Part shown: positions 7,441 to 57,481 of the stretch, one piece after another | Position numbering within the stretch: position 1 is the first letter of the stretch | Layout of the letters: every line of letters starts with the position of its first letter | NCBI GenBank assembly: GCA_963920665.1 | Contig: OY987266.1 | Coordinates: 13,955,001-14,019,000 of the forward strand | From: Straminergon stramineum | Taxonomy: Eukaryota; Streptophyta; Bryopsida; Hypnales; Calliergonaceae | Direction: 5' to 3' | Length of the DNA stretch: 64,000 nt | Notes under the pieces: generated by a model | Database searches by the model: none | What the model was told of the DNA's origin: nothing | Seen by the model: the letters and a program-made list of their open reading frames with translations, nothing else | Program-made: the position numbers and the translations under genes

Positions 7441-7444
7441 TTGG

Positions 7445-8107: not shown

Positions 8108-9140
8108 TGATGTTTCCTGCTCACCTATCGGAGTGACCGAACTTGACGTTTTGTCTCTTTGGAGAGAGATTATTTTTTGTATACAAAAGTTGAAGTAAAC
8201 CTTGGATAGCTTTTACAAGAACATATTGAATGTCCTCTATAGAATACTTAGCCAAAGAAATCGTACATTGTATAAGGATTTACATGTGATGGTTCTTCAT
8301 CTTTAAACGATGGGGTGGCTAATTTTGGGTCCATAAATGATAGAAACTCTCTATATAGGATAGAAGAGCATCTCATCATCTTGTAAATTTTGTAATGTAA
8401 GAAGGGGTGGTCCTCCTTGGAAAGTTTACTTCCGAGGACCGCATCTATAATTTGTAACTTAACAATTTACAACGTCTAAGAAAGATGATTTCAAAGGTGT
8501 CCCACTTGTCCATTTAGAAATTTCTTGTATCTTGTGGGTGACCAATTTTGAAGGATTGGCATGCAAAAAAAAGAAATGATAGCATTCAAACACCCTTGAT
8601 GGTTTGAACAATGTCTTCATCAAGGATAACAATCTTTTGACTTGATGTGCATATGCTTCATTTGTTGTTCATTTCAATGTGCTCTACAATTTGTATGTTT
8701 GCATTTATGACCTCTTCCACCCCAAAAGGGTTTAGGGTTGTGTAAAAAAGCCGAATTCATGTTCAATGTAGAGCAAACTCGAAGAAATTAGAAAAAGACT
8801 TTGGACACTTCTAAAGTAACTTCTATAATATTATTATGCAATGGTAGAATGTACGTATTTCAAGTTCTCCCTTTTTGTTTCAATAGAAGTCAATCATGTC
8901 TTGTACTCTTATATTTCTGATTCCCTTTTTCTGTTTTGGCACATTCCTTTTTTATCTTTGTGAACATTGTAGACATATATTTGGAACCATAAAGAAACAA
9001 CTCAAAATCTAATTCCACATTCTAGACCATATCATAGTGGTCTTATGATTTTATTTGAAAGCAAGCGAAATAGAAGTGGGAAGTTGTAATGCCAATGTTT
9101 CTACCCCATATGAAGGTTTCTTTTAGCTATTATTTAGGAT
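8108..9140. other. Non-coding stretch, nothing recognised
   Basis: AT-rich sequence with no supported reading frame, RNA gene or repeat boundary that I can identify. Confidence 0.4.
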
Positions 9141-9159
9141 GGTCCATCCTTTTTGGATC

Positions 9160-9395
9160 CGCAGTCGCCCAGGACTAGTGGTCGCCCCCACACGAATGGT
9201 CGCCTCCATCTGCGAGGACCTCTGGAACCCACAGTCACCCCCTCCCGCGATCGCCCCAACCCGTAGTCGCCCCTCCCACGGTCGCCTGCATACTCGCGGT
9301 CGCCCGTTTCGCATGCGCCAGACCCGCACGCACCCCAAAGCGACCTTGGGTACTTAAGCAGTCGCCCAGACCCGCAGTCGCCATTCTTGGTCTTG
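9160..9395. repeat. GC-rich ACCCGCGGTCGC array upstream of kinase A
   Basis: Degenerate units such as cccgcagtcgccc and cgcggtcgcc, reading ACCCGCrGTCGC on the plus strand, which is the coding strand of the gene that follows. Confidence 0.75.
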
Positions 9396-9423
9396 CGCAT
9401 TGGCTTTCATCCACGTTGAAGTG
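9348..9423 (+). promoter_or_regulatory. TATA-like element plus conserved leader of kinase A
   Basis: GGGTACTTAAG at 9348-9358, then after 45 bp CTTTCATCCACGTTGAAGTG at 9404-9423, about 105 bp before the ATG at 9529. Arrangement and spacing match the promoters of genes D and E. Confidence 0.6.
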
Positions 9424-9528
9424 GCTGAATGCATGCTCGTGGGCCAAGGTGATTTCAGAAGGGGAAGTTTTTGCCCATTTTTCTCTCCAAGTTCAAGTCA
9501 AGGACGCCTCGTTTTTCAAAAGAGGACC

Positions 9529-11118: not shown

Positions 11119-11384
11119 GATTTGATGTAATAGTTTTCTAGCAGGAATAGTAACGTTGGACACCTTTTGTGCATCTCATTTTGGAAAAGCAATGCAAGTG
11201 TGTAAACTATTTTTAATGTGAAGTGCATATTTGGACCCAAAATATTGAGTATTGTACATACGCATCACCTACTTGCATGCATTTGGGTTTGAATATGAAT
11301 TCTTTGCATGGTTCATTTGGGGATAAGTCAATCTAATTGTTAAGGCAATCTAATTTCACTATTCAGTGAAGGTATGTGCTGTTG

Positions 11385-11660
11385 CGGTCAGGGGTTTGGG
11401 ACCCGTGGTCGCCCCAGACCCGCACGCCCCCCCAGTCGAAGTTGCCCCAGACCCACACGCGCCCCCAGTCGCGGTTGCACCAAACCCGCATGCGCCCCCA
11501 GTTGAGGTTCCCCAGACCCGCAGTCGCCATCACCCGCGGTCGCTGGCGATGGTCCTGGACCCGCGGTCACCTTCCCGACCCACACGTGCCCCACCCAGAG
11601 CCGTGCTCGCCCTAAGGCGACTACGGGTACAAAATCAAAGCCTAAACCCGCAGTCTCCCA
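11385..11660. repeat. GC-rich ACCCGCGGTCGC array upstream of gene E
   Basis: Repeats of agacccgca(c/t)gcgcccccag and cacccgcggtcgc, reading in the same direction as gene E. They resemble the arrays before genes D, kinase A and RING A. Confidence 0.75.
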
Positions 11661-11701
11661 TCTTTCCCTTTTGCGCCTTGTCTTTTATCCACCTAGAAGT
11701 G
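11625..11701 (+). promoter_or_regulatory. TATA-like element plus conserved leader of gene E
   Basis: GGGTACAAAAT at 11625-11635 and, 46 bp later, CTTTTATCCACCTAGAAGTG at 11682-11701. The leader also shares TTGCGCCTTG with kinase A (TTGCGCATTG). It lies about 255 bp before the chosen ATG at 11956, further than in the other genes. Confidence 0.55.
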
Positions 11702-11955
11702 GCTAATTGCAAGCTTGAGAGGGGAGGTGGGTGTTGTGAGGAGGATATTCTATGTCTCCTCATGTCACTTTCATCCAGTGATTGTAAATCACGCGGAATT
11801 GTTTGAAACTTGATTGTGATTGTAAATGTTCATGTTGATGTATTTGTAAATGTGAATTACCACAAGGTAATAGATTTAAGTTTGTACAACAAGGTTTTAG
11901 GCTTGGTATATTTGGCATAGTATTCGAGTAGAATTGATCGTATAGATTGAGCACT

Positions 11956-13323
11956 ATGGAGAATGAGCCCCCACCATTGACACCTGCCACAATCAAACGC
12001 CTTACACGACAAGAGATGAAGCTCATCCGTGACAAGGGTCGGAAATGGTCCGGTAAAATTCACAAGAAGCGTGTGGCCATTTTGATCCATCCAAAGATTA
12101 AGGCATTTAAAGGTTGGAGAAATGAACCTAAGCCTTGGAGTTACAAAACGGTTTGCAAATACGTGGATTGGTGCCACATCAGCAAATTATTTCCCTTGTG
12201 TCTGCACAAAGAACATCTGAAGCAAAACAAAGTAAATCTTGCATACTCGAAGGACGAGGGCTTCATACTTAGATGTTGTGAGGTGTAGAAGCACTTGTAT
12301 TTGGAGGACTCAACTTACCGAAACGACAATTTCTGTTTCTTTCTTGTGAGAATGGTGTATGCTGAATATGTGTTGAAGAAAGAGGTGGATTGGTCAGCAT
12401 TAAAGGAGGTCCCTATTGCAATCATTCGGGAGATTGCAAAAATTTTACCACCATATGAACCTGTAGATGTAAAGAAGATGTTATCCAAGGTGAAGCGTGG
12501 GAAGTCATTTGTTCGCGATGAAAGCATGGTTTGGTCAGAGACTTCTAGCTTTGATCAACACACCCATGAATACGATGGATATTCTTTCCACAGCGATGAC
12601 GAGGAGGTTGCTATACAAGAATCTAGGTCGGCTATGGATGTGGGAGTCGACCAAAGTGGACAATCAGCTCAAGAGCCCATCATAGTACAAGATACGGATG
12701 AAGAAGGCATGGATGATGGGGTGGCTAGGAAAGTGGACCCCGTTTTGCGAGAGGGTGACGGGAGTGGCGGAGGAAGCGATTCAAAAAATGAAGAGGCAAT
12801 GTTGCTTGCCAAAATAGAAAGTGCAAAATTAGCATTGCGTGCAAAGAACAAGCAATTGAAAACTTTGAAGGAGCAAGAAATGAATCCCACTTTCGTAGAG
12901 GTGTTGAAGCAATGGTTGAAGGCCATAACGAACGTCACCGAAGAGAATGACAAGGGCTTCCATTCCTTCAAAAGAAATCGCGATTTTTATTTGAAGGAAA
13001 TGAAGAGTGGAAAGGTGCATAAAATGGACCATTATTTGATATGGGAATCAAAACTCGAAACCCTTGTCCGCAAATGTCAGCAGGCACAAAATGAAAGGCG
13101 AAGCCTAGAACTTCAAATAATGGAGAAGAAAAAAGAATATTACGAGGCCGCCGTCCAGCACGTTCCAAAAGTAGAGCTTTTGGCTTCTTCCTCAACATAT
13201 GGTAGTGTTGCTAGAGAAGTAGCATCGCTTAAGAAGTTGGTGAAGTTCCATGAGCAAAGATTACCATTGATGGTATCGGAGTTGAAACCTCTGAGGGCAG
13301 AAAGTCAAGTTTTTTCGGATTAG
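11956..13323 (+). pseudogene. GW-domain coiled-coil protein gene (gene E), one internal TAG
   Basis: Frame of 456 codons from ATG 11956 to TAG 13321-13323, with one internal TAG at 12286-12288 (codon 111). The first ~150 codons carry the shared domain: AFKGWRNEPKPW, VDWCHISKLFPL, NKVNLAY, RCCEV, VYAEYVLKKEVDWSALK. The internal TAG falls at the position of W or F in the relatives. Residues ~270-450 are rich in Lys, Glu and Leu with predicted coiled coil; there is no RING. The frame stays open after 13323 to a TAA at 13417-13419, so the true end may be there and the TAG another decay stop. Lying between the kinase-like and RING-like genes, it may form part of the same element. Function unknown. 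Confidence 0.7.
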
Positions 13324-14663
13324 TATAAGTGGAATAGAGCTAGCATAGGGAAGTCTGATGCAAAATTACAACAAATGGGTCCGGAGCCCATTTTGAAGGA
13401 CTACCTCAACACAGAATAAAATACCTAGGAATACAATGAGTATAAATACTTTCACCACGATTATTTTGTATTTTGCCTATCATGGTGTTATAAAGAAATG
13501 CAATGTTTTGAGATAAAACAATGTATATGGTGTCTTGAAGCAATGTCTATACTAGAATAGTTAAATTGGTGTGGGCACACTAGTGGTGTACGTGGAAGGG
13601 AGAAAATGCCACACCACTTTTGGATCTTACAACTTTTCTATATGGATGAATATGTCTTTCTCATGTTTTGGGAGAAGGTGATGGTATGATGAATGGAATG
13701 GGATTCTCGCACATAATTACAATCGAATAGGAACATGGGATTGATGGAAAGTTCTTGATGCTTGACCATAAAAGTTGACATAGTATTTTGTGAGAATGTC
13801 CTCATGAAATCTATAGCACAACTTGTATTTATGATTTTCATATGAATAGTGGAGAACGAAAAACCGATTATGCCCAAAATACCATATTAATCGAGGAAAT
13901 TTATTGAGCTTATTTGTCTTGGGTGATTTGCTTCATTGTTCTTCCTTGTATATAGGATTTTTTAGAATTCTAGCTTTAGCGTAATTTGAAGAAAATTACA
14001 ATGGATATGGAGGAATTAGGTAGGTTTTATATTTAAGTTGGCCTACTCATGTTTTTTATGAATCAAAATTTTGACCTCCAAGGACAGGGTGAACCATTTG
14101 AAGGTATGGTAATGTGAAGTCAACAAATCAACATCCACGAAAAGGGGCATGTTGTATTTGAACCCCTTTTATTCCTTCTTTGGCCAAGTATCTTGAAAGC
14201 TTAGAGGGAAAGCTTCCTATAATTAGAACCTCACGATTTTAAAGAATATGAAAGGAAATATCCAATTGGACAATGATGCTCCACTCTAGTGAGTAGTGAC
14301 CTAGTTTTCTTCTCAATGCAAGTGAAATTAATTTGAAAAGTTAAACTTTAAGAGCTTTGTTGATTTGATTCATACAAACTATTTTTGGAAGAACTAGAAA
14401 AGATCATTCTCGATATGATTTCAGAAATTGGTACTTTGGTAGAGAGGAAAAAAAGGTAGTATTAAATCAAAATCAATGCCATATGGAATTGCCGTACATA
14501 GGTATGCTAGGAAGTCGTAGAAGTGGAATGAAAGAAGCAAACCCTAAACCACTCCATCGTACTTGCCAAAACAACTAGAAACATAGTGTAACTAAAACCT
14601 AACCCTTACTTGTCATCTATTATGATGGGAGGTAAGGCTAAATTGCATGATTCCTACGAATGT
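13324..14663. other. Non-coding stretch between convergent genes E and RING A
   Basis: AT-rich 3' flanks of two convergent genes. No supported gene, RNA or repeat structure seen. Confidence 0.4.
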
Positions 14664-17156
14664 CTAGTCAATTACATTTGGGTTGTTTTGAGAGCCACTT
14701 CCTTCACCTTCTTCGTAGGTCGATGCTTCCCCAACCCCTAGCTTTCGCTTTGCACGGGTTCGTGAAGCTCGTCCGTCTGCCTTCAAAATTGATTGCAACA
14801 CGTTGGAGTCCTGTAGAGCTTGGAGGGTCCTTGTTGTTTGCGGAGAATGTGCTTCCAACAAGTAGTCAAGTGCTTGACTTTGGTAATATGGTCCGTACGT
14901 AGAGTCTAGGTAAGCCATACTAGTCAAGTCTTCTAGGGAGGCACTATCATCTTGATTAGCCACCCTTTGTCCTTCTAAATTCCAACGATGTCGTTGTGGA
15001 TGAGGACCCCACTTGAAGGTTGAGGAGGTCTTGTCCCAATATCCACCAAGGCATTGGAAGAAGAATGCCCTCCTCCCTTCGTTTTGTGGCCCCTTTCCCA
15101 TGAGCCTCGGTGCAACTCTAGCAATTTTGTCTGGGTCTGTTTCCCAATTCAATTGTGAGCTAGCAGGTCCTTTTTCTTGATCATGTTGTCCTTCTTGCCA
15201 ACTCCAAACCAAATTTTGGCCCCACAAGGTTGTGTTAGCTGTAGTATCACGTGTGTGTTCCCAAGAAGGAGGCATGTAGGTCATCAAGTTGAACATGGTA
15301 TATAGGTGATCGTGGAATGGTGCTGAACAAATCACACAACATCGTCTAATCAAGCATTGCGTGATGAGACATTGGGGGTGGTATACATGTGCACAAGATC
15401 CTAGTGCCCAACCCCCTTCGGGGCCAAATTGTTCAAGACATATAGGGCATTTGGTATGGTCCAAAACAAAAGGTGCTGGCTTGGGCCACAGGAGCATTCG
15501 TTTCTTCTCTTCTATGTGGCTAGACATTTGGTTTTCGTGGTCCCAACCATTTTTGCTCCAATCTATGACCTCCTTTTGTGGCAATTCCACCATGCACATG
15601 TTATTGGGAAACATGTCCTCCAACAATGCCCATGACATCAATCCATTCTCACGTTTAGGAGCATTTGCAACAAAGTTTCTAGAAACTTTCTCTAGCTCCT
15701 TCGCAACTTGTTGGGATCTATCCATGGAGAGAATGCAAGCGACCTTCCAATGGTAGTATGTGGTAGTCAACTCAGCCAACTTTCTTCGAAGCATCTTATT
15801 TTCTTCTTGAAGTCCATGGTCTTTCTCCAATTGAATAATTGATGGAACCACAGGAAACAAAAGAGAGTCTTGGGTCCCATTGAGTTCAATTGTGTCATTG
15901 GTAGTATATCTTGTGACAATAGTAGGAAGTGTATTCAGAATGATGGGGGAGCGTCTAGTGCGCTTGGCTAGAGGAGAACGCTGAAGGATATGGTTGGTAA
16001 GGTCCCCCACAACCTTGTCCACATTTTGGAGGTTCTACTCAACAAAGGCGTCATCCATATCCGACAAAGTGAAAGTGTCATGGTCTTTCTCTCGAAGGCG
16101 TTGCAGTTCTGTAGTTTGTTGAGAGATGAGTGTACTTTTTTGTTCACACTCACATCGCAATTTCCTCATTTCATTCTATAGTGAAGAAATTTCAACATCT
16201 TTGGTCTTGAGAAGGTCCAGAGCTTTTGCCAAAGTCATAATGTCGTGGCTTGAGCCCATTGTTGATGGAGAAATGGGAACACGATTAGTTTCTTCCATAG
16301 CTGTGTCCTCATCGGGCCCGAAGTCGAAGACGTCATTTGTGCGCTGTGTTGGCAGTGATGGGTTAGGAACTATAGTTGGAATCGATGCGGGTCCCACTTG
16401 TGTTGTTGAACACCGTACTCTAGATGGTTGCCTTGGTCGTTGTCCCGTGGATGTCGTGGGTCCTTCTACAATTTCATTTTGAACCTCACTGGGGCAAACA
16501 GATTGCTCTACGATTTGTATGATCCTATGGACACGCGTACCATCAGAGTCATCATCTTCTTCAGACTCCTTAGTGTCAACCTCAATGGCAGGGGTTTGCA
16601 TTTTGTATGCACTTTGAATAGGACCAAGTCCCCCCTCAAGAAAGGCTAGAACTCCTTTTGGGATGAAACTACCCTCTAGACGAGTGACATACGTACTTCC
16701 CTTGATTGTGCTCCAATCAACTTCTTTGTTTAGAGCAACCTCAGCATATACTCCTCTAGCAAGGAAGAAGGGGACCTCATTCCTATCTACAAAGGCGGTT
16801 TTGTAGAGGACTTGCCACAATTCAATGCATCTTTGAAGGAATGCTGGATTCTCATAGTACTTCAAGTTGGCCTTATTGGTGTGCCGATTATAATGATGAC
16901 ACCATAAAGGAAAAAACTTGCCAATGTGGCACCACTCGATGTAGTCTTCGCAGGTTTGTATTGTCCAAGGCTCTGGTTCTTCATTCCAACCCTTAAAAGC
17001 GAGGTGGGCTTCACTATTGAGCAGGTGCAATTGCTTCCGATGAATAGTGCCCCTACGCTTGCGATGTTTGTCTTTGGCAGCCTTCCATAATGCCTTGGCG
17101 GTCTATGCAGCAGCGGAGATAGGCAATGCCCTGGCATTGTTAACTCCAGTGGCCAT
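14664..17156 (-). pseudogene. RING-H2 protein with GW domain (RING A), three internal TAG
   Basis: Frame of 831 codons from ATG 17156 to TAG 14666-14664, interrupted by TAG at 17105-17103 (codon 18), 16178-16176 (327) and 16025-16023 (378), with no frameshift. The N-terminal domain has AFKGWNEEPEPW, YIEWCHIGKFFPL, NKANLKY, RCIELWQVLY and ARGVYAEVALNKEVDWS. A central coiled coil follows. A RING-H2 finger has Cys570, Cys573, Cys588, His590, His593, Cys596, Cys607 and Cys610. After it come conserved Trp-rich blocks (WGQNLVWSW, RRAFFFQCLGGYWD, FKWGPHPQ) and a tail ending NPNVID. RING-H2 proteins are usually E3 ubiquitin ligases; that role is inferred from the family. RING C at 54751 has the same order and spacing. 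Confidence 0.75.
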
Positions 17157-17339
17157 CAATGATTGTCATGTCTAAGGCTCAAAAAACTCATTTGGGAGTT
17201 TAGGTGGTCCACAACTAGTAAGGTAAGAAGGGTGGATGAATGTAATAAATAGTAAATAGTCAAGGTTCACGCATGTAGCCACTAAAGGATACAAGACAAG
17301 AAGCCTCAATGAAAGGTGCCCAAAAGGTCTTGGGCGAGT

Positions 17340-17785
17340 GGATAAATAGGTGGGGCGAGCGCAGGTGAGAGTTGGTCATGGGGTGCGTGCGGGTGGGCGA
17401 CCACCGATTGAACCCGCGATCTCCAGGGGGCGCGCACAGATCTCGGAGAGAGACTATGGGTCTGGTAGGGCACATTCGGGTCCGAGGAGGCGACTGCGGG
17501 TCCAAGGGTGCATGCGGGTCTTTTGGGGGGCGACTGTGGTTTCAGGGGCGCATGCAAGTCCTCTGGGGGGTGACTGCAGGTCTTTGGGGGCGCGTGCAGG
17601 TCCTTTGTCAAGCGACTGCGGGTGTTTTGGGGCAACCGCGGGTAATTGTAGGGCGTTACTTCTCTTTGGATTCTCACTTCGTGTCTTTGCTTCACAACTT
17701 GCCACGTACTCGACACCCGCGGTCGCCCACCAGCCTAAACCCGAAGTCACCCTACCTATGGTCGCCCACACCCGCATGCACCCCT
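17340..17785. repeat. GC-rich array upstream of RING A, divergent at its right end
   Basis: From 17340 to ~17650 the units read gcgactgcgggt on the plus strand, that is ACCCGCAGTCGC on the RING A strand. From ~17715 to 17785 the direction flips (cacccgcggtcgccca), facing right. A TATA-like CACCTATTTATC (minus, 17352-17341) lies between the array and RING A. The flip makes this look like a divergent promoter, as at 54752-55219, but no gene follows on the right. Long reading frames here are repeat artefacts. Confidence 0.7.
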
Positions 17786-17799
17786 TTAGGATGCTACGT

Positions 17800-19010
17800 G
17801 GAAGACACGTGTCTGCCACATGGCATACAGGTGGCCTCACGGGCAGGATGAAATTTTTTTTAAAGTCAAAGGTAAGTTTGACTCTATTAGACGAACAAGA
17901 GGGTCTACTTGACATGTTGGATGTCGTGTTCGTCAAGTTGTCGAACTGTCCGCCGAAACAACCCTGGTTTTCACTGAAAGAGCTTTGGAGCAATTGTTTT
18001 TAGTTGAAGCATTATGGAGGATATTGGAAGGGCTTCTAACAATGCTCAAACTAATATGGAGAATATACTTAGGACATTGATTATGTTTATGAAGCATTAT
18101 AGAGCATTATAGTTTGATGATCTACAATATTGTGAAAGAGGAAGGATTTGGAGGGTTACGGTGTGCACAATCAGATGTTAATACACCTCAATGGACATCA
18201 ACTAATGAGTCACTGGCTAATCCATTGAATTTTGGTGTGCCACAATGTGACAATCAATTGGTGAATATCATGACTGTCAATTGTTTGCACAGGTTCGTGG
18301 TTCCCTAAATTGAAACCTTAAAAGTCTATAATCTAGGATGGGAATAAGTTCAAAATTCCAGATATTCATGAAACATTTCAAACCACACTAGGTTCAGAGG
18401 CACACATCACAAATGACTTATTTGGCATCAAAGAATAGTTCAAAAAATATGTAGATCTCAATCTACTTTAATTAAACAAAATCCTTACTTCAAGACTGCC
18501 AAGATTATTCCCAATTGTTCTACAAAGCAAGGAGAAATGTAGACCTTCTTCACCATATCCACCAACATGAATTTATATTTTTAAATCTTCATCAGTAGTT
18601 GAAATAAGTGTTTGGAATCGTATACAGATAGTATTCACAAGAGTTTCTCTTGAAATTCACAATTTTGGTATGAATTGCAACTTAGAGTCAGGAGAAGTAA
18701 AAAAAAGCAAAACCATGTTGTACTGAAGAGATTTGAAAGAGACAAGTAGACTCCATTTGACACTAACCAAAAAATGTCAAGTTCGTTTTATTGGAGGTAT
18801 TTTAATACTTTGGCACCTTTTCAGAACTTGAGCTTAGAAGCATAAATCCAAATAAATCCTAGATTTAAGGCCCTTACATACATGAAAGTCACAAGTTTTA
18901 GTGACAAAATTGAGCCAATATAACAAAATTGACTATAAAAATAACGGATTTAAAACTTTGAATCAAGTGTTTTGTTTGGAATTTCTTGCATTCAGTCCCA
19001 TGAAATGTTT
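17800..19010. other. Non-coding stretch, nothing recognised
   Basis: AT-rich with no supported reading frame. A small inverted repeat GACGAACA...TGTTCGTC lies near 17900-17935. Confidence 0.35.
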
Positions 19011-45372: not shown

Positions 45373-45558
45373 AAGTGACTCAGGGTTGTCATATCGGACG
45401 GGTCAGGGTCACCGGACGTCCCGGACGGACGGGCGAACTGGACCGGACGGCTGGACGGTCCGGACCGATCGGACGGCTTCAATTTTTCAAAGTTGTGGAA
45501 TTTTTTTGAATGACACGTCACCTCGGACACCTAGATCCAGGGCTTGAACGTCATGTGA

Positions 45559-45712
45559 GGGCGCGGACTTCAGCGTCAGCGTCAGGGCACGGACTCCTTC
45601 AGGCAGGGCGCGGACTTCAGCGTCAGCGTCAGGGCGCGGACTCCTTTAGGCAGGGCATGGACTTCAACGTTAGCGTTAGGGCGCGGACTCCTTCAGGCAG
45701 GGCGCGGACGGG
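45559..45712. repeat. 47-bp subterminal tandem repeat of the hAT element
   Basis: The landmark gggcgcgg/gggcatgg recurs at 45559, 45606, 45653 and 45700, exactly 47 bp apart. The unit contains gcgcggacttcagcgtcag and gcgcggactccttcaggca. The related gcgcgg motif is inverted near the right end (57295-57330), as expected for transposase-binding subterminal repeats. Confidence 0.9.
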
Positions 45713-46113
45713 AAATGGTGGATTTTACTTATGTGTTCTCCAATATATATATATATATATAAATTTATTTTTTGAACAAATGGGAGACCCCACTGCATTA
45801 AAAAGAACTAGTAACTGCAATATATTTTACATGATTGCACTCACCAATGTTTCCAACATGCTTGTCAAATACAAAAATACAGAAAAGAAATATTAGTAGG
45901 CTGCAATGTTTGTGATAACCAAAACTATTTATAAAATTCATGCATTGCAAAGTACAATAACAATACAATGAATCTATACTTCCAAAATACGCTCACTTTC
46001 TCATAGGTTATCTAAGACATTCCTTTGGCTTCTCGTCCATCTTTCTTCCAATTGCTACAATTCTCTTCAACTCTTAAAGACCCGAGATCTACCATCGATG
46101 CAACTCAATAACC

Positions 46114-49100
46114 TCAATTATTCAAACGACTCGACCTACGAACTTCTTGGGCACTTGGATCCGCTACATTAGCATCTCGAACAACAACATCATCATCCTC
46201 TGGTGCCTCATCATTCGCATCTTCATTGCTGTCATATTCATCTTCTGCTTCACCACTGTCTGTGGTCCAATGTCCCTCAACTTCCAAGTTTTCATTTCGA
46301 AGTTCTATTGTAGTTTGACCTTGACTACGTTTGCACTTGAACCTCTTATGTCGTTGTGCGTTGAGGTCTTCTGCATCAGAATTTATAGTGGGTCGACCTG
46401 GAATTGTTGGAACAACAAATGCCGGGGTTGACCCACTAGGTCTTGGTACGTATGTACTTAGGAACGGTTCTATCACCCTATTTGGATCTCTTGCCCCAAT
46501 TCCAAGGAGTAGATGATTAGTAGGCCTTGATGATGATGCTTCTCCAATATGTTGACCTTCTCTTTGTCCATGGCCTCTACTTCCTCCACGGCCTCCAGCC
46601 CTTCCACGGCCTTTCGTCTGTCCATGGCCTTGTTGATATTGACCTAGTTCATGACGAACGGGGGGCCGAGGGGCCATAGGTGGTCTACCACCAATAGTAC
46701 CACGTGAAACGCTTTGCAGAGTCAAATCAACATTCCCCAGAGAGCCTAACCCTGCTGGAGAAGGTCTTCGAATGGCATTGGAATTTGTTACTGAAGATGG
46801 GTCTATGGAATGTGGTGTTTGTTTACCTTGATCAGAAATAGTAGGATGGCCCTCAACTGCAACAGGTACACGGGCAAGGTCTTCTGGTGGTTCTACAAAT
46901 GCAAAAACATCATTAGGGTCCACATGCTCTGGATCAAAAGGCCTTCTCACATTACCAGTTGGTTGGTTTCTTGCAATAGGGCGTGCCACTCTTGCATTTC
47001 TAACGTTTCTATCATGATGTCCTTGAATAGCTCTAATGTTTCAAGTTGATGGCCCCACTCCTATAGGCCTTGTATTGCCATCTCGATTGTGAGAAGATCC
47101 TCCACGGTTTGGATTTGCATTCTTCCCCCTCTTTACGTCGCCATCTTCATTTCCACCGCTATTTCCTGGAGGGAGGTTGTCATCATCGTCGTTGTTGTTA
47201 TGGGAAATACCATCATCGACGTTATCGTCATTTGGATTGTCGGTCTCTAAAGAAGACGACAAAGCGGGGACTTCAACGATCCCTTCATTTTGAGGAAGTG
47301 GAGGTGAAGGGCTGCAACGTGGATTGGGTGGAATGGGTGGCCCCCAAGGACCCCAACGACCATCAAGGAGTTCCTCCTCTCCATTGTCAGCATCTCCGTA
47401 GTAGTTCCTTGCTTCCTCGAGGTGATCAGCTCCTCACCTCCAAAGATCTGGGTTTGCCGAATACTCTTGAGGTGCTACGTAGGCTTCTCCATCAACCTCT
47501 TCTTCTTCCTTTGCTTGCATTGCGTCGAATTTCCGATTGCGTTCATTCGTCGGGAGCGGACCAAGGGTATCTGGATCGGAATCCTCCGAGTACATATTTG
47601 CATCATACCAACGAACTGGATTGGCTCCTGGTCACTGTTGAAGTACACGGCTATTGGTATAAATATATACCAATGACTTTGCCTTTTCGAGGGCTAATCG
47701 ATTTCGGACCTTATTGTGAACAAAGGAATACATACTCCAATTCCTTTCACAAGAGCTAGCAGAACACGTGAGGGATAAAAGACGCACAACAATTTTTGAA
47801 AGAGCCCGATCTCCAACCCTGTGCCACCATTGGTGGGGAAGCATTTGTGTCACACAGATGTTGGGTGTCATAGCTGGATTGTACGGTCCACTACCCTCCT
47901 CAAATTCTGTTAATTCCGCCAACACATCATCGAAATTCACACCCACTGAATCTGCCATCTTGCGGATGACTCTATACAATGCACGTAGGGCAGTTCCATC
48001 CACCATGAGCGCCACATTATCCAAGAGATATGGATTCAAAAGGGCCGCAGCGTAGTGTGTATCTTCAAAAACCATGTTCCATCTTTCATTGAAAGATGCT
48101 TCCAAAATGACTGCTATGTCATCACGTAAGTTGAAAGGTGGTTCTCTTAAATAATACACGTGCCCTCGCAAATTGTGCATTACGAGCCACGCCCAACCCA
48201 TGGCTGGTTCTCGTCCATCAAACACACACAAAGCCTTCAATACGTCTTCAGTCATGTACACGTAATTCACACATCGTTGCCAGAAAGCCACATCTTGAAT
48301 GGTTCTTTTGACATTACGTGAAGCGGTAGCTGCCTGCACTCCATTTTGTTTGTTCCGTAGGGTATCAAAGTAATTTAGAACACGCGGGTGGTTATTTAAC
48401 CGCTCCAAGACTCCTCTGAGTTTCACCAGTCGCTGCAACATGAGGAAATTACAAGCGAAGCGGGTTTCGCTAGGCACTACGAGTTGCAGATTCGGACTCA
48501 ACTCACGGAAAACCGACATGGTTGCATGATGGTTTCAAATGTATTGGCACAATCTTTTTGCCCTGGCAATTAAATCCGAAAATTCCTGGATTTTGGCCCA
48601 ATCTTCCAACATGAGATCCAGTGCATGTGCCATGCAGCCTTGCGCAAAAATGTGCGGATATGTTTGAGTGATGTCTTGCAATGCCCCAAGCATGTTTGCT
48701 GCATTATCTGTGCACACTTGTGTCACATATTTGGGATCCACCTTCTCAATGTACACTTTCATTTGGTCCGCTATGTAGTGCATTGTTTTCTTTTGCGAGG
48801 TAGTATCAATTGACCCCAAAAATACATCACCTGCAAGGCATGACATCATCACATTCATGAGGGGCCTCCGATTGACATCATCCCAACCATCGGTGCATAT
48901 CGCCCCCCCATAGTGCTTGACAGCAAATCCAACCTTCTCTTGAATTTGCTTCTCAATTTGCAACCTCCTCAGTTCAATTAAATTAGTCCTGAACTGATGG
49001 TAAGAAGGTGGACTATATTCAAACCTTGCCTGTGAGGTTGCCTTTACAACCTCAATGAAGGCTAGATGCCTTGCCACATTAAATGGCACATTCGCTTCAT

Positions 49101-49620
49101 AGAAAAAACTTGCCCACTTCTCATCCAACTCCTTCTTCTTTGCAATGTTGAATGCGTCTGCCATGCGCTGCTGACGTAGTGATCCAAATCTCGTAGAATT
49201 CGATCCAGCAAGACTATATGACGTTTGTAGAATATCATTTCCTTCTGAAACGTTTGCCCCTTCTTCCGCTCTCCCACCATTGATCCCACCCGTCACCTCA
49301 TTTTCAGTAGCTTCACTTGAACTTGCACGTGCAGTTGCTCTAGATGGCGCACTTTGAATTGGTTCTCCCTCATACATGTCCTCGACATCCATTCGTAGCG
49401 GGACAAAACCTGTACAATTGGCAAATCTATGTCGCACATGACGAGGCATACTTCGACAAATTGACCTCTCCGATTTTGAGCCATATCCGAAATGTGCAAA
49501 AGCACGCTCACGTTTGTAATTGAAGGTCCCAGCATAGAAAACACAAGTCACCTTAATCCCATTCTCTGTAAAGTTCAGCCATGGTTCCCATTCCTTGGTC
49601 TGCTTCCTTTGACTTGCCAT
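46114..49620 (-). pseudogene. hAT transposase with ~500-residue C-terminal extension, four internal TGA
   Basis: Frame of 1169 codons from ATG 49620 to TGA 46116-46114, interrupted by TGA at codons 362 (48537), 663 (47634), 729 (47436) and 860 (47043). There is no frameshift. It begins with a BED-like zinc finger (KVTCVFYAGTF, second Cys replaced by Tyr). A DUF659/RNase-H region follows with D244 (CTDGWDD) and D305 (VCTDNAANML), then the hAT C-terminal dimerisation domain with E625 (SASSCERNWS) ending at ~662. The first TGA lies in a Y-I-*-N-H-H motif where the family often has Arg, suggesting CGA. Residues 663-1168 are an unusual low-complexity tail: Glu- and Asp-rich, an Asn/Asp stretch, an RGG-like box (GRGRAGGRGGSRG) and an acidic C-terminus. 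It would cut and reinsert the surrounding element if expressed. Confidence 0.9.
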
Positions 49621-49879
49621 TGCGTTCAACCGTTCACAAATAATTTCAAATGTCTTCCTCCTCCTTCGTATTGAAGTTAAAAAGATTGTAGATATACCGA
49701 ACAAAGTATCAGTAACAACAGTTAGCGCTAATCCACTGCTTGAACTGATTTTGACATCACCTCAGCAGCAAACTAGGGCCATCTGCCACCCAAGTAGACT
49801 CACAAGGAGCTCAAAATGAATTGAAGTCCAAGAGATAGAGGCCAGGTGACAAATGTAGGGAATGCTGGGTCTTCCTTTT

Positions 49880-49888
49880 CTTTATATA
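49880..49888 (-). promoter_or_regulatory. TATA box of hAT transposase
   Basis: TATATAAAG on the minus strand, 260 bp upstream of the ATG and immediately downstream of a GC-rich repeat array, the same layout as at 54880 and 55016. Confidence 0.6.
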
Positions 49889-49904
49889 CTTAGGGAATGC
49901 AGGG

Positions 49905-50225
49905 GCGTAGACTTCACCGATGTGCATGGCAACAGGGCGCGGACGTCTTCATTCCCAAAGTGTAGGGCGGGGACGCACACTTCAATCCCTGGCATCAGAG
50001 CGCGAATAGGAAGGTAGGGCGGGGACTTGAAGTTAAGGCGCGGACTCCAAGGCGCGGACTTGAAGTCAGGGCGCGGACTCCAGGGCGGACAATTCACAGA
50101 GGCGGAAGAACTTGAGAGAGCGCAACTAAATCACAGACTCCATAGTGTGGACTTGAAGTTAGGGCGCGGACTCCAGGGCGCAGACTTGAAGTCAAGGCGC
50201 GGACTCCAGGGCGTGGACGTGCTCG
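49905..50225. repeat. GC-rich GCGCGGACT array upstream of hAT transposase
   Basis: Repeats of about 32 bp containing ggcgcggacttgaagtcag and ggcgcggactccagg, with degenerate members at both sides. They match the subterminal and cargo-promoter repeats of the same element. Confidence 0.85.
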
Positions 50226-50689
50226 TCCAGCACAGGAGGCAGGACTTTGAAATGCGCTTGGGCTTTGACATTCTTCAGTCCCTCCCTTTTTTGGAGCGGG
50301 GGAACCATTAATTATAGCCTCAACAACTTGTTTTGGATTCCGACAAGGCAATGAAAGCAAGATGCCAAATAAAGAGCTCCATTGACTAAGATTTGGAAGA
50401 AACTTCATGGAAGAGTATGTCCCCTTCATTGTGGTGGGAAATGTTTTTCCTTACTTCTTGCAACACTTCAAACTACTTTGAACCAACAAATAGTTTAGGG
50501 TGTAAAAAAAAGACTCTAAATTCTAAAGTGTTTAGGACACTTTGAGGAAATATTTAGGAAATGTTTTGGAAATGTAGTGTACTAGATAAAAGGGTAAAAC
50601 CTCATTTTGTTTAAAATGAAAGAAATAGTAGGGGGTTAAAAAAAATTCTAGGCCTTCAATACGTCACTTGAATTTTTAATTCCATCATT

Positions 50690-52240
50690 CCCTTTCCTAT
50701 CTTGGGGGGCTTCATTCCTAAAACTCTTCCATCCCACCTCAATGCCATTAATTTTTTTGTAAATCATTCAATTTTCTTTTTGGCTTCATGAACTCTTTAA
50801 ACACTTCCATTTCAACTATTTGCCCTCTGTTTTTTGTTCCACCATTTCTTTCTTCATTAATTCCTAAAACTCTTTTATTCCAACTCCATGCCAATATTTA
50901 TTTGTTGCGTCATTTCCTTTCCTATTTTTTTTGCTTTCCATTTTTTTTCCTTCATTTATTCCTGAAACTCTTTTATTCCAACTTTAAGCAAGCTTTTTTT
51001 TATTCCATCATTCCCTTTCCTATTTTTTTTACTCATTAGCAAAATTCTTCCATCCCAACTCAATAATAAATGTTTTTTATGGTACCAAATTGGAGTCTTT
51101 CCATTCACTTCCCATTTCTCATATGAAGAAATAGGTAATCAATAATAAGATTTGTTTCATATCTCTTTCACATTTGTTTGCTTTTATTAACATTTAAAAT
51201 GCACTTACATTCCAATGGATTGACATTTCTTTCCCTTCCCTAGTTTTCGTCATTGATTGGAAATGAATCCTACTCCAATTCAATGACATTTAATTTCATT
51301 CCCTAAATGTTTTTATCATTAAATCCTATTCCAATTCAATGACATTACATTTCTTCACCTAATTTTTTTTATCATTGAATATTTGAATCCTATTTCAACT
51401 CAATGACATTTCATTTCCTTACCTAAATTTTATCCCCATTGAATCCTAATCCAATTCAATGACATTTCATTTTTCTCACTAACTTTTTTATTTATTAAAT
51501 CCTATTCTAACTCAAAGACATTTTACTTCCTTCCCTAATTTAAAGTTTTCAATTTTATTTTATGGTCATTTTTTGGTAACCATTTTATTGGATATGTACC
51601 TATTTCCATCCCAATTTAATGATTCCCATTTACCTTTCCCAATTTTGGGTGCTTCGGATAACAATACACTTCCATGCCATTTTTTTGGTAGGATTCATTC
51701 CCTTTCTGATTTTTTTGCTTGATTAGCAAAATTGTTTCATCCCAAGTCATACAAAAACTAAATGGCATTATTATTCTCTTCCTAAATTATTTCCAACTCA
51801 ATGCCATTTTTTTTTCATTGATCATTCCCTTCCTAATTTTTTTGTGCTTGATTAGCAAATTGCTCCATTTCAACCCAAGTGCATTTAATTTTTGTATTCC
51901 CTAAACCCATTCTATTTTTTAGGGGCTTGATTTGCAAGATCATTTTATCCCAACTCAATGCCATTTATTTTTTGGTATATCATTCTTTCCCTATTTTTTT
52001 GCTTTTCTCCATCATTCCTTTGCCTATTTTAGTATTTTGCAATTAAATATGTACCTATTACCATCCCATTTTTTCAGGGGTTCCATCATTCCTTATTTCC
52101 TTTGCATTAATGACATTTCAAAAGTGTTTTTTTCCTATTAAATGACATTTGTGGTCCTTCCCTAATTTTATTCATTGATTGGAAATTGGGAATGAATTTT
52201 ACTCCATTTCAATGACATTTCATTTCATGGTATAAATAAT
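50690..52240. repeat. Degenerate AT-rich tandem region inside the hAT element
   Basis: Repeated phrases such as caactcaatgccattt, tcattccctttcctattttt and cctaaaactcttccatccc recur with an irregular ~70-100 bp period on one strand. No coding signal. A reverse-oriented copy lies at 57085-57180. Confidence 0.7.
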
Positions 52241-52453
52241 TTTAATATGTATGAAGTCGACAAGTCGTTACAAATGGGTATGTGCAAAAAATAAACAAAG
52301 TCAATTTGGGCAAAACCATTCAAAACAAAATCATATATATTTCATATGCATAGTGTAATATAAAGTAGGAAAGTATATAAGCCTATATAATGCTAGGAAA
52401 GTAAGTCTTCTAAGAAAACCTAAGCTCACTAGCTAGAACACTCTAAACTATAC

Positions 52454-54751
52454 TTAGTCAATGTTCATTGGACTACTTGCACTACCACTTGGTCCAGCTT
52501 CATTGTCATGTGTCTCGGCGTGGACTGGAAGGTCTTCATTTGAGCCCAAACGAAGTCTACGAACTACGGATCGAGTTCTCCTTGCTGGTCCGTCTTCCTC
52601 TAATATAGCCCTCAATATTTGTGATTGTTTGAGGCTCTGAAGACATTGGAGAGTTCCCGGGCTATGTTGTTCTAACAAATAGTCCATCCCTTCATTTCGA
52701 AAGGTTTCTCGCCACTCTGACTCCGATAGTTGTGCAAGTTCAGCAGGGTCTGGCATGCCAATGTCTTCCCCCATCCGCATCCCATTGTCGTCAGTAATGC
52801 GAACTCCATCAACGCCCCATAACCATCCACGAGGATGAGGTCCAAATTGGAAGTGTTGTCCAGCTTCGTTCCAATGCCCATTGAAGCATTGGAAGAAGAA
52901 ATTCCGTCTTCCTTCGCTGAAGTTGTCCTTTAGTGGAACCAAGTGGTGGCACACCTCCACAATTTGAGCCGGATCTCTTTCCCAACCCCATTCGGTACAA
53001 AGGTTTTGTTTGTCCAACAAATGGATGTTCAATTTCCAGCTCCACACCAAGTCTGTTCCCCACTTTTGAGAATGATCAGGGGCATTTTCAGCATTGAATT
53101 CCCAATGCGGTGGCATGTAGGGAACTAATCCAAACAACTCATACAAGCACTCATGGAAAGGAACCTTGCACAATGAACAGCGTCGGCGAATAATCATCAA
53201 GCTAATTAGGCAAAATGGGTGGTACAAATGTTCACACGTGCCTAGGTGCATTGCACCTTCTGGGCCAAATGGATTAAGACAAATGGGACATGTAGTTCCA
53301 TCATGCACGAAGGTTGAAGGATTTGGCCACAGTAGTAATGGATTGCCTTGATGGTCGACGGTAGAGCCAACTGCATTCTTGAAATCCCAAGCATGTTTGG
53401 ACCAATCGATGGATGTTGGTCCACCACCAATGTTGATGGTTGTCATTTCATCCATATTGAAAAGATCATCCACCAGGGCCCACGATGTCAAACCAAAAAC
53501 CCTCTCTTGATTGTTCGCGCCGTAATTGTTGTCTATTTTTTTGAATTCTTCCATCATTTGCCTAGTTCTGTCAACACTAAAGATGCATGCCATCTTCCAT
53601 TGGTAATATTGCTCCATCAACGCATGCAATTGATTTTTCAATCTCAAATTGTTTGCAAGCGCGTCCGTCAGTTGGGTGCTTCGGTCAACTGGTATTATTG
53701 CAACTACATTCGTGGGTAATTCTCCGAAGGACAATGAATCTTCTTGAGTACCCATTGTTGCACCAACTTCTGTATGTTCCAATGGAATTTGAGAAGTATT
53801 TGAAGGCCCTTGCGCTTCCCCTTGTGGATCCTGACTAGCATTGGTTAATGTTGCTGCTTCAAGAGTGTGTCGAAGTACCTCCATCTCAAGTTGTTGTTGA
53901 TTGATGATGTTGTCCTTCTCTTTGATTTCTTCCCTCAATTTGTTGACATCATCATATAAAGAATGCAATTCCGCATTCTTGTCATTCACTTCGGTCAACA
54001 AACTCTGAATTCGGTTTGCAGCAGCTGTAACATCAACAATTCCTATTGTTGGTTCGTCGGTAGGTGGCACCTGTTCCTCCACAACATTTTCTGGTAAAAC
54101 CTCATTAGTTGCACGCGCAGCCCTCCTCTTTTTAGCACGTTGTTGTTGTGTTCTAGGGTTGACTACAATTGGTACATGAGATCCATCAGAGTCGCTGTCC
54201 GTAGATGAGTCCGAAGTGTCATAGTTTCGTGGTGCGCGAACCTGTGTAGTTTTTTTCAATAGACCACCTTCCGGGTATCTTTTTACCCCCCTTGGAATGA
54301 ATCCATTCTCTGGGGGAGGAATTTTGACATTTTCCCCCATTGTCTTCAAAGTTGACCAATCCACTCTCTTGTTCAACTTCACCTCTGCATGGACCCCTCA
54401 TGCAATGAAAAGATGCACTTCATTGCATGTGACGTTCGGGACATCATACAACACCTGGAACACCTCAATGCATTGGTTCGTGAACTCATTGTCAAGGCAA
54501 TGTTTCAAATTTGCCTTGTGGAAGCGTCTATGAAAGTTATGTCGCTCTTTCGGGAAGACCTTGTCAATGTGGCACCACTCGATGTAATTGGTGTAGTCAT
54601 CATAAGTCCATGGATCAGGCACGTCCTCCCACCCCTTGAATGCAAGCTTGGCAGGGTTACGTAGAACATGCAGTCGCTTACGATGTTTGGTTCCTGCTCG
54701 CAGTCGGGTCTTGTCTCGTTCCTCCTTGGTCCTTCTTGGTGGTATAGCCAT
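52454..54751 (-). pseudogene. RING-H2 protein with GW domain (RING C), hAT cargo, one internal TGA
   Basis: Frame of 766 codons from ATG 54751 to TAA 52456-52454, broken only by TGA at 54400-54398 (codon 118). RING A reads ARGVYAEV there, so the stop is most likely CGA to TGA. The N-terminal domain has AFKGWEDVPDPW, YIEWCHIDKVFP, HKANLKH, QCIEVFQVLY and VHAEVKLNKRVDWS. A coiled coil follows (~230-280). The RING-H2 ligands are Cys488, Cys491, Cys506, His508, His511, Cys514, Cys525, Cys528, with the same spacing as RING A. Downstream are the same Trp-rich blocks (WGTDLVWSW, RRNFFFQCFNGHWNE, FQFGPHPRG) and an -MNID tail. A ubiquitin-ligase role is inferred from the RING. It lies 468 bp from, and divergent to, the kinase-like gene. 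Confidence 0.85.
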
Positions 54752-55219
54752 TTTTGCAGAAAAATTCGAAAACCTCCAACGTGGCAATCAAGTAGACCCC
54801 GCACAACGCTCACAACCAGCTCAACAAAGAGGTGGAAGGTTGAGAGTATGCAGGGCGGGCACAAATGGGGCGGAAACGGCTTTATATAGTTGGAGGTGGG
54901 GGACGCCAAGGCGCGGACTCCATCGCGGGGGGCGCGGACGCCATCGCAGGGGGCATGGACCTCTGGGAGAGGGGCGGGAATACTAAAAGTCAGGGCGTGG
55001 ACGTGAGCAGGGGGACTATATAAAGCGAGTCCCCACCCTCATTTCTTTGCCAAGTCCGCGCCCTATGCCTCACACGCTAGTTCGTCCCCGCGGCCTATGT
55101 GAGTGAGTTTGGTGGGTGGTGGGCTTGGCCCGCATATGTGACCTGGTTTTTTTGAATTTTTTTTAACTTTCGTGCTTTCGGATAGATACGGAGGTCCATT
55201 GTACCAAATTTTTTTCATT
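54752..55219. promoter_or_regulatory. Bidirectional promoter of RING C and kinase C
   Basis: CTATATAAAG on the minus strand (54889-54880) faces RING C; CTATATAAAG on the plus strand (55016-55025) faces kinase C. Between them is ~125 bp of GC-rich repeats (ggcgcggactccatcgcgg and relatives). TATA-to-ATG distances are ~130 and ~195 bp. The two outward-facing TATA boxes around one array suggest the genes are expressed together. Confidence 0.7.
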
Positions 55220-56800
55220 ATGACAGGGGAAAGGAGTGGATCTGCGGAAAAACATCCTATGTTTAAAGATTTGGATGATGTCGGTGAGATGGTAATTCCA
55301 TCCACGAACACATTGATGTCCTCAGGTTCATCAAATCCTTCCTCATCAGGCCAAAAGAAGCGCAAAAAAACCCAAAATCCCCATATGCCTCCACATGAAT
55401 TCATAGTTGAAGGGAGAGCAATAGCTGTGGTGTTCTACACTCGTCGAGGTACAACTATGTTGACCAGGGAGTATGTGGCACACAACGAAGAAGGATACCA
55501 CAAACTGACAAGGGACTTGCGAAGGGAGCTGGAGTCAAAGTTTGAAGCATCTGAGAAATTCAACAATTTCTCTGATTATTGGTTGCACCAAGATTGGCTG
55601 GATAAACAGGTAGTTGCCCTCACAACCAATATAGTGTCAAATTGGTGTTACCACACGAGTAAGAAAGAGGATGGTAGCGATTGGGACATGTAGAACAAAG
55701 AGTTGGTTGCAAAATTGAAAATCATTCAAAATTTTGCTCAACAATTTTCTTCATAGCGTAAAAAAAAGCAAGCACCATGGAAAGCGACAATTGAAGATGC
55801 AATAAGGGCTCATTGTGTGAGTGGAACATTCAAGTGGCTTGAAAGTTCAGTAAAAGTCATCCCCATGCCGGAACAGAGTGCAGTTGGTTCATATGGGACC
55901 GTGAGGAAGGTGATGCTTACAAAACTTGAGAGCATTCCTAGTTGGATATTTTTTGTTGGGAAGAGCTTGAAAACCACAAATGAAAAGGAGAAACGCCAAG
56001 GAATCATCAATGAGGCGGGAGGGTGTCCAATGATACATCCTGGCATCATTTGAATTGCGTACCTCCACCCTAAAACGATGGAAGGCTATACGCTGTGGTG
56101 GAATGGAGGATCTCTAATTTCTTTCTTATCCAAATACAATTCGAAAGTGAGCGAATTAGTGGATGCAGATGACATTGAGCGTGAACAAGGTACGGGGTTG
56201 ACAAAAGAGGAGCTTGCATGGGTTGCAACTTACTGAAAAAACCGAGTGAACTTGGCACTCTCCTTGCTTGTCATTGTGGGGAAATGCCACGATGCACAGT
56301 ACATGCACAACGACATAACTCCATCCAATGTTTTGCTCCATTTTGATGATTGGAAAGAACAGAGGGTGTACATAGGGATATGTGATTGGGGACTTTCTAG
56401 CCGAGTTGTAGAGAAAGAGCCATCAAGGTATGGCTTTCCCAGCATGGAGATTCTGGCAAAAGAGAAGAAGAAGCGAAGGTTTGCAGCCCCTAAATTGTTT
56501 TATGTATATGGAGAGCAGGGTTTAGCAAATTCAATTGAGGCCATGTAGAAAACACATTTGTACTCCATAGCTGCTGATGCACATGCGGCGGGATGGATAG
56601 CAGCTGCAATTTGGAAAGAAGACTGGAACCCCAAATACTTTACAACAAAGAATCCAGAGCAATATTAGAACCTCAGGATCAAATTGGAAAGCCTCGTAAA
56701 AGAGGATGTGAGTGAAAGGGTGTCAGTGCCAGATGTTCTAGACACATTGAGAAATGCACCCCACTGTTGGACTATACCAGATTGTTGTTATCGTACATAG
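55220..56800 (+). pseudogene. Protein-kinase-like protein (kinase C), hAT cargo, six internal stops
   Basis: Frame of 527 codons from ATG 55220 to TAG 56798-56800, interrupted by TAG at codons 158, 179, 443 and 483 and TGA at 278 and 339, with no frameshift. A novel N-terminal region is followed by kinase-like motifs: a glycine-rich loop at ~223 (GSYGTVRKV), FVGK, a catalytic loop at H363-N-D365 (HNDITPSNVLL), D389-W-G, an AAPKLFYV segment and RVSVPDVLDTL near the end. Length and motif spacing match kinase A (529 residues; 24 codons from the TGA to HND in both). The Glu of the usual APE motif is Lys here, which may be damage. The most decayed gene of the element. Confidence 0.75.
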
Positions 56801-57084
56801 TATTTAGTTGTTTCACTTTTTGTAGTTTAGCATATAGTTTAGGCATAGAAGGTAAATCATCCTCATAGAGGACCATGTGTACCTACTTGGAAATTGCCAA
56901 ACACCTCAAAATATATATAAAATCGGATGTATTCTATACTCAAAATCTCATAATATATTAATATTTCATTTGATTGTTCTTTCTCATTGCATTTTTATGA
57001 GTTCTATGAATTGATGATAAAACTTAAATAAAAACAATGAATGCAATAGTTTGGTATAAAAATACATACACTTTATGTTTTCAC

Positions 57085-57180
57085 TATGCCTATGTTTTAG
57101 GAGTTCATGAAGCCCCCTAAAAAAAAAGAAATGATCCACCAAAAAAAAAATGACATTGAAGTAGATTGGAAGAATTTTAG
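57085..57180 (-). repeat. Inverted copy of the AT-rich hAT repeat
   Basis: Read on the minus strand, cttcattcctaaaattcttcc and caatgtcattttttttt match the repeat at 50690-52240. It places an inverted copy near the right end of the element. Confidence 0.55.
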
Positions 57181-57481
57181 GAATGAAGAAAAAAATATGG
57201 AGTGTTGGAGTGACTTGGAATATGGCATATGAAATATGAAATATGAAATGGAAATATGTAAAAGCATATTAATTTAGCATATGTAAATCCAGTCCGCGCC
57301 CTGACGATTTCGTTCGCGCCCTACATGTTGCAGAATCCATGTGGCATCCACGTGGCCTATTTTTCTGTTTTCATGAAGTCAACTTTGTGTTGACTGTATC
57401 GGACGGGCGAGACCTCTAACGGACGTCCCGGACGGACGGGCGAACCGGACGTCTGTCTACTATGACAACCATGAAGTGACT

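What the first reader, a model, noticed from the sequence alone, without database searches (positions are those of the whole stretch)
45381..57473. A 12-kb hAT transposon carries a RING-H2 gene and a kinase-like gene as cargo
Seen: 12 of 13 matching terminal bases, a perfect 8-bp duplication AAGTGACT outside both ends, a hAT transposase inside, and between the transposase and the right end a divergent RING-H2/kinase-like pair. Known: hAT elements usually encode only a transposase. Inference: the pair is mobile cargo, perhaps acting on host silencing or on element regulation by phosphorylation and ubiquitination. This is my best candidate for an undescribed system.
Basis: partly seen in the sequence, partly recalled or inferred. 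Interest (0 to 1): 0.92.

Follow-up and report, generated by a model that had tools for sequence, protein, structure and literature searches.

The report
Multi-gene hAT transposon with RING, kinase
This is a damaged copy of a large jumping gene that carries, besides its own moving enzyme, a ubiquitin-ligase-like gene and a kinase-like gene; related jumping genes in the same genome keep the same set, so the two extra genes look like long-standing working parts rather than accidental passengers.

Summary
Window 45381-57473 (12,093 bp) is a hAT element with 12 of 13 matching terminal bases, a perfect 8-bp target duplication, a DUF659/hAT transposase and a divergent RING-H2/kinase-like pair. Ten other full-length copies were fetched: 10 of 10 carry all three genes, with their own 8-bp duplications (8 perfect, 2 at 7 of 8). 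Joined flanks of two of them match uninterrupted empty sites, so the block moves as a unit. Of 75 family-A transposase matches, 62 have both genes nearby on the expected strands.

'Cargo' needs correcting. The pair is old: transposase, RING and kinase also occur together in a diverged family B (48-60% identity) and an abundant, rearranged family C (34-42%), one copy of which lies in this window; codon positions show constraint between families. The window copy is a short form and dead: 4, 1 and 6 premature stops in transposase, RING and kinase. A GGCGCGGAC array marks both ends and both promoter regions and is absent from 33.9 kb of flank.

Best reading: an element-encoded regulatory or anti-silencing module. 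Function is inferred, not shown.

The parts
45373..45380 (.). left target-site duplication AAGTGACT
45381..45393 (+). left terminal inverted repeat CAGGGTTGTCATA
45381..45730 (.). left subterminal region: CCGGACGG-type repeats and 6 GGCGCGGAC motifs
46114..49620 (-). hAT transposase gene (DUF659, Dimer_Tnp_hAT), 4 premature TGA stops
49762..50260 (.). repeat array upstream of the transposase, 10 GGCGCGGAC motifs
50016..50436 (.). single copy of a direct repeat that the 10 fetched relatives hold twice, with about 3 kb between; likely deletion point
50450..52450 (.). AT-rich spacer with imperfect tandem repeats, no motif of the array
52454..54751 (-). RING-H2 gene: N-terminal helical domain, coiled coils, RING; 1 premature stop
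54752..55219 (.). shared divergent promoter region of RING and kinase genes, 4 GGCGCGGAC motifs
55220..56800 (+). protein-kinase-like gene, 6 premature stops in this copy
57201..57473 (.). right subterminal region, CCGGACGG-type repeats and 2 GGCGCGGAC motifs
57461..57473 (-). right terminal inverted repeat TATGACAACCATG
57474..57481 (.). right target-site duplication AAGTGACT
1..17966 (.). comparison element: most of a family-C relative (kinase +, N-terminal-domain gene +, RING -, right end); its transposase is not within the window

Best explanation
A dead, shortened copy of a multi-gene hAT transposon family whose RING and kinase genes are inherited parts of the element. SHOWN: transposase, RING gene and kinase gene lie between hAT ends, insert as one block, and recur together in at least three diverged families of this genome with coding constraint. 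INFERRED, most likely mechanism (about 45%): the pair is the element's own accessory module. Whatever binds the family-specific GC-rich arrays at the ends and promoters (transposase and/or the N-terminal domain of the RING protein) brings the RING ligase to the element, where it removes or remodels host silencing or repair proteins, or sets the amount of transposase; the kinase, made from the same promoter region, licenses the substrates or the module by phosphorylation.
For: Ends, target duplications and empty sites. All three genes in 10 of 10 fetched copies. Of 75 family-A transposase matches, 65 have RING and 70 have kinase within 30 kb on the expected strand, 62 both; random RING placement gave a mean of 0.6 and a maximum of 5 in 500 trials. 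Diverged families with the genes together: B on C8, a RING/kinase pair on C7, family C. Third codon positions differ most in 14 of 14 between-family comparisons. Of 8 RING ligands 7 are invariant in 30 aligned proteins; kinase Lys, Glu, HxD-loop Asn invariant in 18, both Asp nearly so; RING resembles RNF24/RNF38/Arkadia ligases and the kinase model has a protein-kinase fold. GGCGCGGAC: 22 of 26 window motifs lie in the two ends and two promoter regions, 0 in 33,893 bp of flank; family C has another motif in comparable places.
Against: No expression, binding, ubiquitination, phosphorylation or methylation data. Within family A changes look close to neutral, so most copies are decaying and say nothing for function. 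Of 13 transposase rows at 52-73% identity, 0 had a listed RING and 2 a listed kinase nearby; caps explain part of this (family B's RING exists but was not listed), yet some relatives may lack the pair. The N-terminal domain has no recognised fold, so DNA binding by it is a guess.
Confidence: 0.72

Rival explanations
1. Captured passengers: RING and kinase were picked up from host genes by an ancestor and are copied along without a job for the element.
For: hAT and other plant DNA transposons can carry captured genes (recalled; review PMC13317346, passages seen). Within family A changes are close to the neutral expectation.
Against: The genes stay together and constrained between families at 34-67% identity and through a change of gene order; passengers should be lost or decay. 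Intact frames of all three genes exist among the copies.
Confidence: 0.1
2. The pair serves not silencing escape but dosage control of transposition alone: the RING ligase and the kinase tune transposase stability or activity in cis to the host cell cycle.
For: The same repeat array sits at the ends, before the transposase and before the pair, as for an autoregulated system; kinase and ligase are a common pair for timed degradation (recalled).
Against: No interaction data; it does not explain why two extra genes of this kind are needed where other hAT elements do without (recalled).
Confidence: 0.25
3. Composite by nesting: RING and kinase belong to a separate mobile element that inserted into a hAT.
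For: Gene order differs between family A and family C, as nesting could produce.
Against: No own ends or target duplication around the pair were noticed in the repeat survey, though this was not searched exhaustively; the pair is with hAT ends in 19 of 19 paired copies and with hAT transposase in other families.
Confidence: 0.04
4. Host-directed module: the ligase and kinase act on host signalling or defence, or against rival transposons, and so favour spread of carriers, rather than acting at the element.
For: RING and kinase proteins often act in signalling (recalled); copies are numerous.
Against: Nothing in the calls points to a host target; most copies are broken.
Confidence: 0.08

Closest known systems
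hAT superfamily with DUF659-type transposase
   Same: 8-bp target duplication, short terminal repeats, DUF659 plus Dimer_Tnp_hAT, subterminal repeats; Glycine and Quercus DUF659 proteins match the transposase at 23-29%
   Different: 15.3-16.5 kb in the ten fetched copies, with conserved RING and kinase genes (and further N-terminal-domain genes in family C); the usual hAT has one transposase gene (recalled)
VANDAL transposons with the VANC anti-silencing gene (PMC5735166: abstract and section list seen; PMC13317346: passages seen)
   Same: DNA transposon with an accessory gene and with family-specific motifs that form tandem repeats and vary between related families
   Different: Mutator superfamily; no RING or kinase is mentioned in what I saw; loss of methylation is demonstrated there, only inferred here
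KIU/Ulp1-carrying MULEs (PMC13317346: passages seen)
   Same: A transposon lineage that keeps a ubiquitin-like-pathway domain among its coding genes
   Different: Ulp1 protease domain in a Mutator-type element; here a RING-type domain plus a kinase in hAT
RNF24, RNF38, Arkadia/RNF165-type RING-H2 ligases
   Same: RING sequence and fold
   Different: Only the RING and weak coiled-coil matches are shared; the N-terminal and C-terminal parts match nothing listed, and were not tested alone

Membership tests
hAT superfamily | 8-bp target-site duplication | tested here: met
   window copy perfect; 8 of 10 fetched copies perfect, 2 of 10 at 7 of 8
hAT superfamily | short terminal inverted repeats | tested here: met
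   12 of 13 bases; same ends in the 10 fetched copies, with a changed base in the left end of E4 and changed first bases in E10
hAT superfamily | transposase with RNase-H-like core (DUF659) and hAT dimerisation domain | tested here: met
   DUF659 E 5e-34, Dimer_Tnp_hAT E 8e-7
hAT superfamily | N-terminal BED zinc finger (recalled as common) | tested here: inconclusive
   no BED match in the two transposase pieces at E up to 1; may be divergent or absent
RING-H2 E3 ubiquitin ligase | C3H2C3 zinc ligands | tested here: met
   present in window and E3 copies; 7 of 8 ligands invariant in 30 aligned proteins, the first His varies in some
RING-H2 E3 ubiquitin ligase | E2 binding and ubiquitin transfer | not testable with these tools
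   needs biochemistry
eukaryotic-type protein kinase | kinase fold and catalytic residues | tested here: met
   model mean pLDDT 80.9, best Foldseek E 4e-8; K235, E252, H350, N357, W377-G378 invariant and D352, D376 nearly so in 18 homologues; the window copy is broken by 6 stops
eukaryotic-type protein kinase | phosphotransfer activity | not testable with these tools
   needs biochemistry
VANDAL/VANC-type anti-silencing system | family-specific tandem motifs in non-coding DNA of the element | tested here: met
   arrays at ends and promoter regions, another motif in family C
VANDAL/VANC-type anti-silencing system | Mutator-type transposon | tested here: not met
   hAT transposase and 8-bp duplication
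VANDAL/VANC-type anti-silencing system | homology of the accessory protein to VANC | not tested
   no direct comparison was made
VANDAL/VANC-type anti-silencing system | loss of DNA methylation caused by the accessory protein | not testable with these tools
   no methylation data
gene-capturing (Pack-type) transposon | close host parent gene of the captured part | tested here: inconclusive
   own-genome lists were filled by element copies (68 of 1067 and 84 of 761 candidates scored), so a host parent cannot be excluded

The most novel reading that the evidence does not exclude
A hAT lineage has evolved its own ubiquitin-and-phosphorylation system: a RING ligase directed to family-specific GC-rich arrays at the ends and promoters of the element, with a partner kinase, that lifts host silencing from the element in a sequence-specific way. 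It would be a hAT counterpart, built from unrelated proteins, of the VANDAL/VANC system, diversifying motif by motif between families.
Probability: 0.3. Interest if true: 0.88.

Novelty: new variant of a known kind. Interest (0 to 1): 0.65.

Why it matters
hAT elements are usually described as one-gene transposons (recalled). A lineage that keeps a RING gene and a kinase gene through deep divergence, a change of gene order and amplification implies that post-translational control is part of its life cycle. That makes a question testable: do transposon-encoded ligases and kinases act on the transposase or on host silencing? It also warns that RING and kinase gene models in such genomes may be transposon genes.

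Tried and rejected
Rejected: chance ends (other copies begin and stop at the same bases). Rejected: an NB-ARC-LRR-like gene beside a family-C RING gene as further cargo: of 41 rows, 11 element-side rows stop at query base 829 (10) or 832 (1) and 28 rows of the other repeat start at 828-871, so it is flank. Rejected: changes within family A as proof of function. Ratios of amino-acid-changing to silent singletons are 218:82, 121:50 and 91:45 against 2.7, 2.2 and 2.0 expected for C-to-T/G-to-A mutations; shared variants 63:27, 28:15 and 20:15 are somewhat lower; mean pairwise dN/dS 0.80, 0.67 and 0.49 without allowing for that mutation bias.

Not settled: whether the 12-kb form arose by deletion between direct repeats or the 15-kb form by a gain. 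I favour deletion; polarity was not tested. Of 19 other end-paired copies 3 are also about 12 kb. The ten that I fetched are all from the 13 of 15.3-16.5 kb, so they are not a random sample of lengths.

Led nowhere: two viral-contig scans with RING and kinase alignments found no relative. The window copy's joined flanks gave no empty site, because its right flank is a repeat whose other copies begin at the junction. The N-terminal domain has no listed structural match, but it was not folded alone, so a known fold is not excluded. Nine literature searches listed no hAT with RING and kinase; the library lacks most subscription papers and preprints. No call was made to name the organism; a land plant is my inference from DUF659 matches in Glycine and Quercus and from the look of the NB-ARC-LRR-like frame.

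Counts: one search used 40 of the 48 left-end rows (8 second pieces dropped). One search sorted one search's 104 rows into 75 + 13 + 12 and dropped 4 second pieces, and one search's 85 rows into 75 + 9 and dropped 1; it used 52 of 58 rows and 13 of 85. All own-genome lists are capped, so counts are lower bounds and absences prove little.

Full report
WHAT WAS CHECKED. The element spans 45381-57473. Left end CAGGGTTGTCATA and right end TATGACAACCATG agree at 12 of 13 positions, and AAGTGACT flanks both sides. The genome that holds the window (326 Mb, 59 contigs) was searched with the left 628 bases: of 48 rows, 39 begin at query base 4-11 (element base 1 is 9), 1 is the window, 8 are inner pieces (40 of 142 candidates scored). 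With the right 681 bases: of 40 rows, 38 stop at 674-677 (the element ends at 674), 1 is the window, 1 is partial (40 of 252 candidates scored).

FULL-LENGTH COPIES. Left and right rows pair into 19 other copies: 13 of 15.3-16.5 kb, 3 of about 12 kb, 3 of 17-22 kb (from the coordinates). I fetched 10, all from the 15.3-16.5-kb group. All 10 have the ends; target duplications are perfect in 8, and 7 of 8 in E1 and E10. All 10 contain transposase, RING and kinase in the same order and strands; E2's RING and E5's transposase are split by an insertion. In the lists, 18 of the 19 have both RING and kinase matches; E2 has the kinase there and its RING. The ten share about 3 kb that the window copy lacks, lying between two copies of a direct repeat of some 290-420 bp that the window copy holds once (window 50016-50436). 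I read this as a deletion; the direction was not tested. In the three copies inspected the extra stretch has no frame above about 135 aa.

EMPTY SITES. Joined flanks of E5 match uninterrupted at 39 places (96-98%, about 200 bases across the junction) and those of E3 at one place (96%) (40 of 961 candidates scored). So the block with all three genes inserted as a unit. The window copy's flanks gave no such site.

STATE OF THIS COPY. Premature in-frame stops: transposase 4, RING 1, kinase 6. Variants among the 11 copies are mostly C-to-T or G-to-A (singletons 255 of 321, 146 of 181, 119 of 144; shared 87 of 94, 44 of 46, 30 of 37, for transposase, RING, kinase), and singletons are close to the neutral expectation. 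This fits silenced, methylated copies decaying after insertion (inference). Frames without stops of each gene occur among the copies.

LINKAGE GENOME-WIDE. Of 68 listed RING matches, 64 have an opposite-strand kinase match within 8 kb; 40 of 40 right ends have a kinase and 36 of 40 a RING match within 9 kb; 34 of 40 left ends have a RING match within 35 kb. Of 75 family-A transposase matches, 65 have RING and 70 have kinase within 30 kb on the expected strand, 62 have both; random placement of RING gave a mean of 0.6 and a maximum of 5 in 500 trials.

OTHER FAMILIES. Family B (C8:23056001-23073500): transposase (48-60% of aligned codons give the same residue), an inverted RING copy (53%), a second RING N-terminal piece head-to-head with the kinase (48%), and the kinase (54.5%). 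On C7 a decayed RING/kinase pair is head-to-head (RING 51-62%, kinase 67%); no transposase match was found in the 9.5 kb fetched. Family C is abundant (52 RING rows listed; 55 of 1664 candidates scored): RING 42%, kinase 34% over the 273 codons compared, transposase 41%. Of 12 listed family-C transposases 5 have a listed RING 12-15 kb away on the same strand; of 13 listed kinases 7 have a listed RING about 5 kb away, convergent instead of divergent. Two places show all three genes: on C3 near 27.90 Mb and on C8 near 3.05 Mb. Further genes with the RING protein's N-terminal domain but no RING found occur in family C. The right end of family C, ACAACCATG, resembles that of family A. A family-C element fills the window to about 17966. 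In 14 of 14 between-family comparisons (11 of the genes themselves, 3 of N-terminal-domain relatives) third codon positions differ most; fourfold sites differ in 35-81%. So coding constraint acted on all three genes over the long term. Against this: of 13 transposase rows at 52-73% identity 0 had a listed RING and 2 a listed kinase nearby; family B is one of them although its RING exists, so caps explain part of it.

REPEAT ARRAYS. GGCGCGGAC (one mismatch allowed, both strands) occurs 6 times in the 350-bp left end, 10 in 499 bp upstream of the transposase, 4 in the 471-bp RING/kinase promoter region, 2 in the 273-bp right end; 3 in 7,381 bp of gene bodies; 0 in the 2,001-bp spacer, 0 in 402 bp after the kinase, 0 in 33,893 bp of flank, and once in the family-C element. 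The fetched part of a family-C copy holds 18 copies of ACCCGCGGT, 3 of them in its last 700 bp and others between genes, 0 in 4,672 bp of flank.

MECHANISM. Shown: one mobile block with three genes, common arrays at ends and promoters, long-term joint inheritance. Inferred: the arrays are bound by the transposase and perhaps by the RING protein's N-terminal domain; RING and kinase are expressed together; they act on the transposase or on host silencing proteins at the element. [quoted passage not shown]

VERDICT. Observation confirmed; interpretation partly supported; a new variant of a known kind (hAT), with the accessory pair as a conserved component.

Noticed in passing
window 1-17966: Most of a second, family-C element: kinase (about 9523-11112), N-terminal-domain gene (about 11938-13420), RING (17108-14664, - strand), right end GAAACAACCCTG; an N-terminal-domain match at 1594-839 on the - strand.
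   Followed up: partly
window 32548 and 32568: Two hAT-left-end-like motifs (CAAGGTTGTTCC, CAGGGTTGTTCC) 20 bp apart, possibly ends of further elements.
   Followed up: no
window 57482-57600 and 60692-61651: The right flank is a repeat whose other listed copies begin at the hAT junction; a DDE_Tnp_4 gene lies about 3 kb further on.
   Followed up: partly
L034 from about 4329 (C8:3057829 onward): An NB-ARC-LRR-like gene borders a family-C insertion; 28 related places were listed, many on C8 and C6.
   Followed up: partly
L016, left flank of E4 (C2 near 11.82 Mb): A family-C-like right end (GAACAACCATG) sits about 60 bp from the left end of a family-A element.
   Followed up: no
C10:1923708 and C10:7565154: Two 12-kb family-A copies with the same length and the same identities and stop counts in RING, transposase and kinase rows: probably one insertion duplicated with its chromosome segment.
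   Followed up: no
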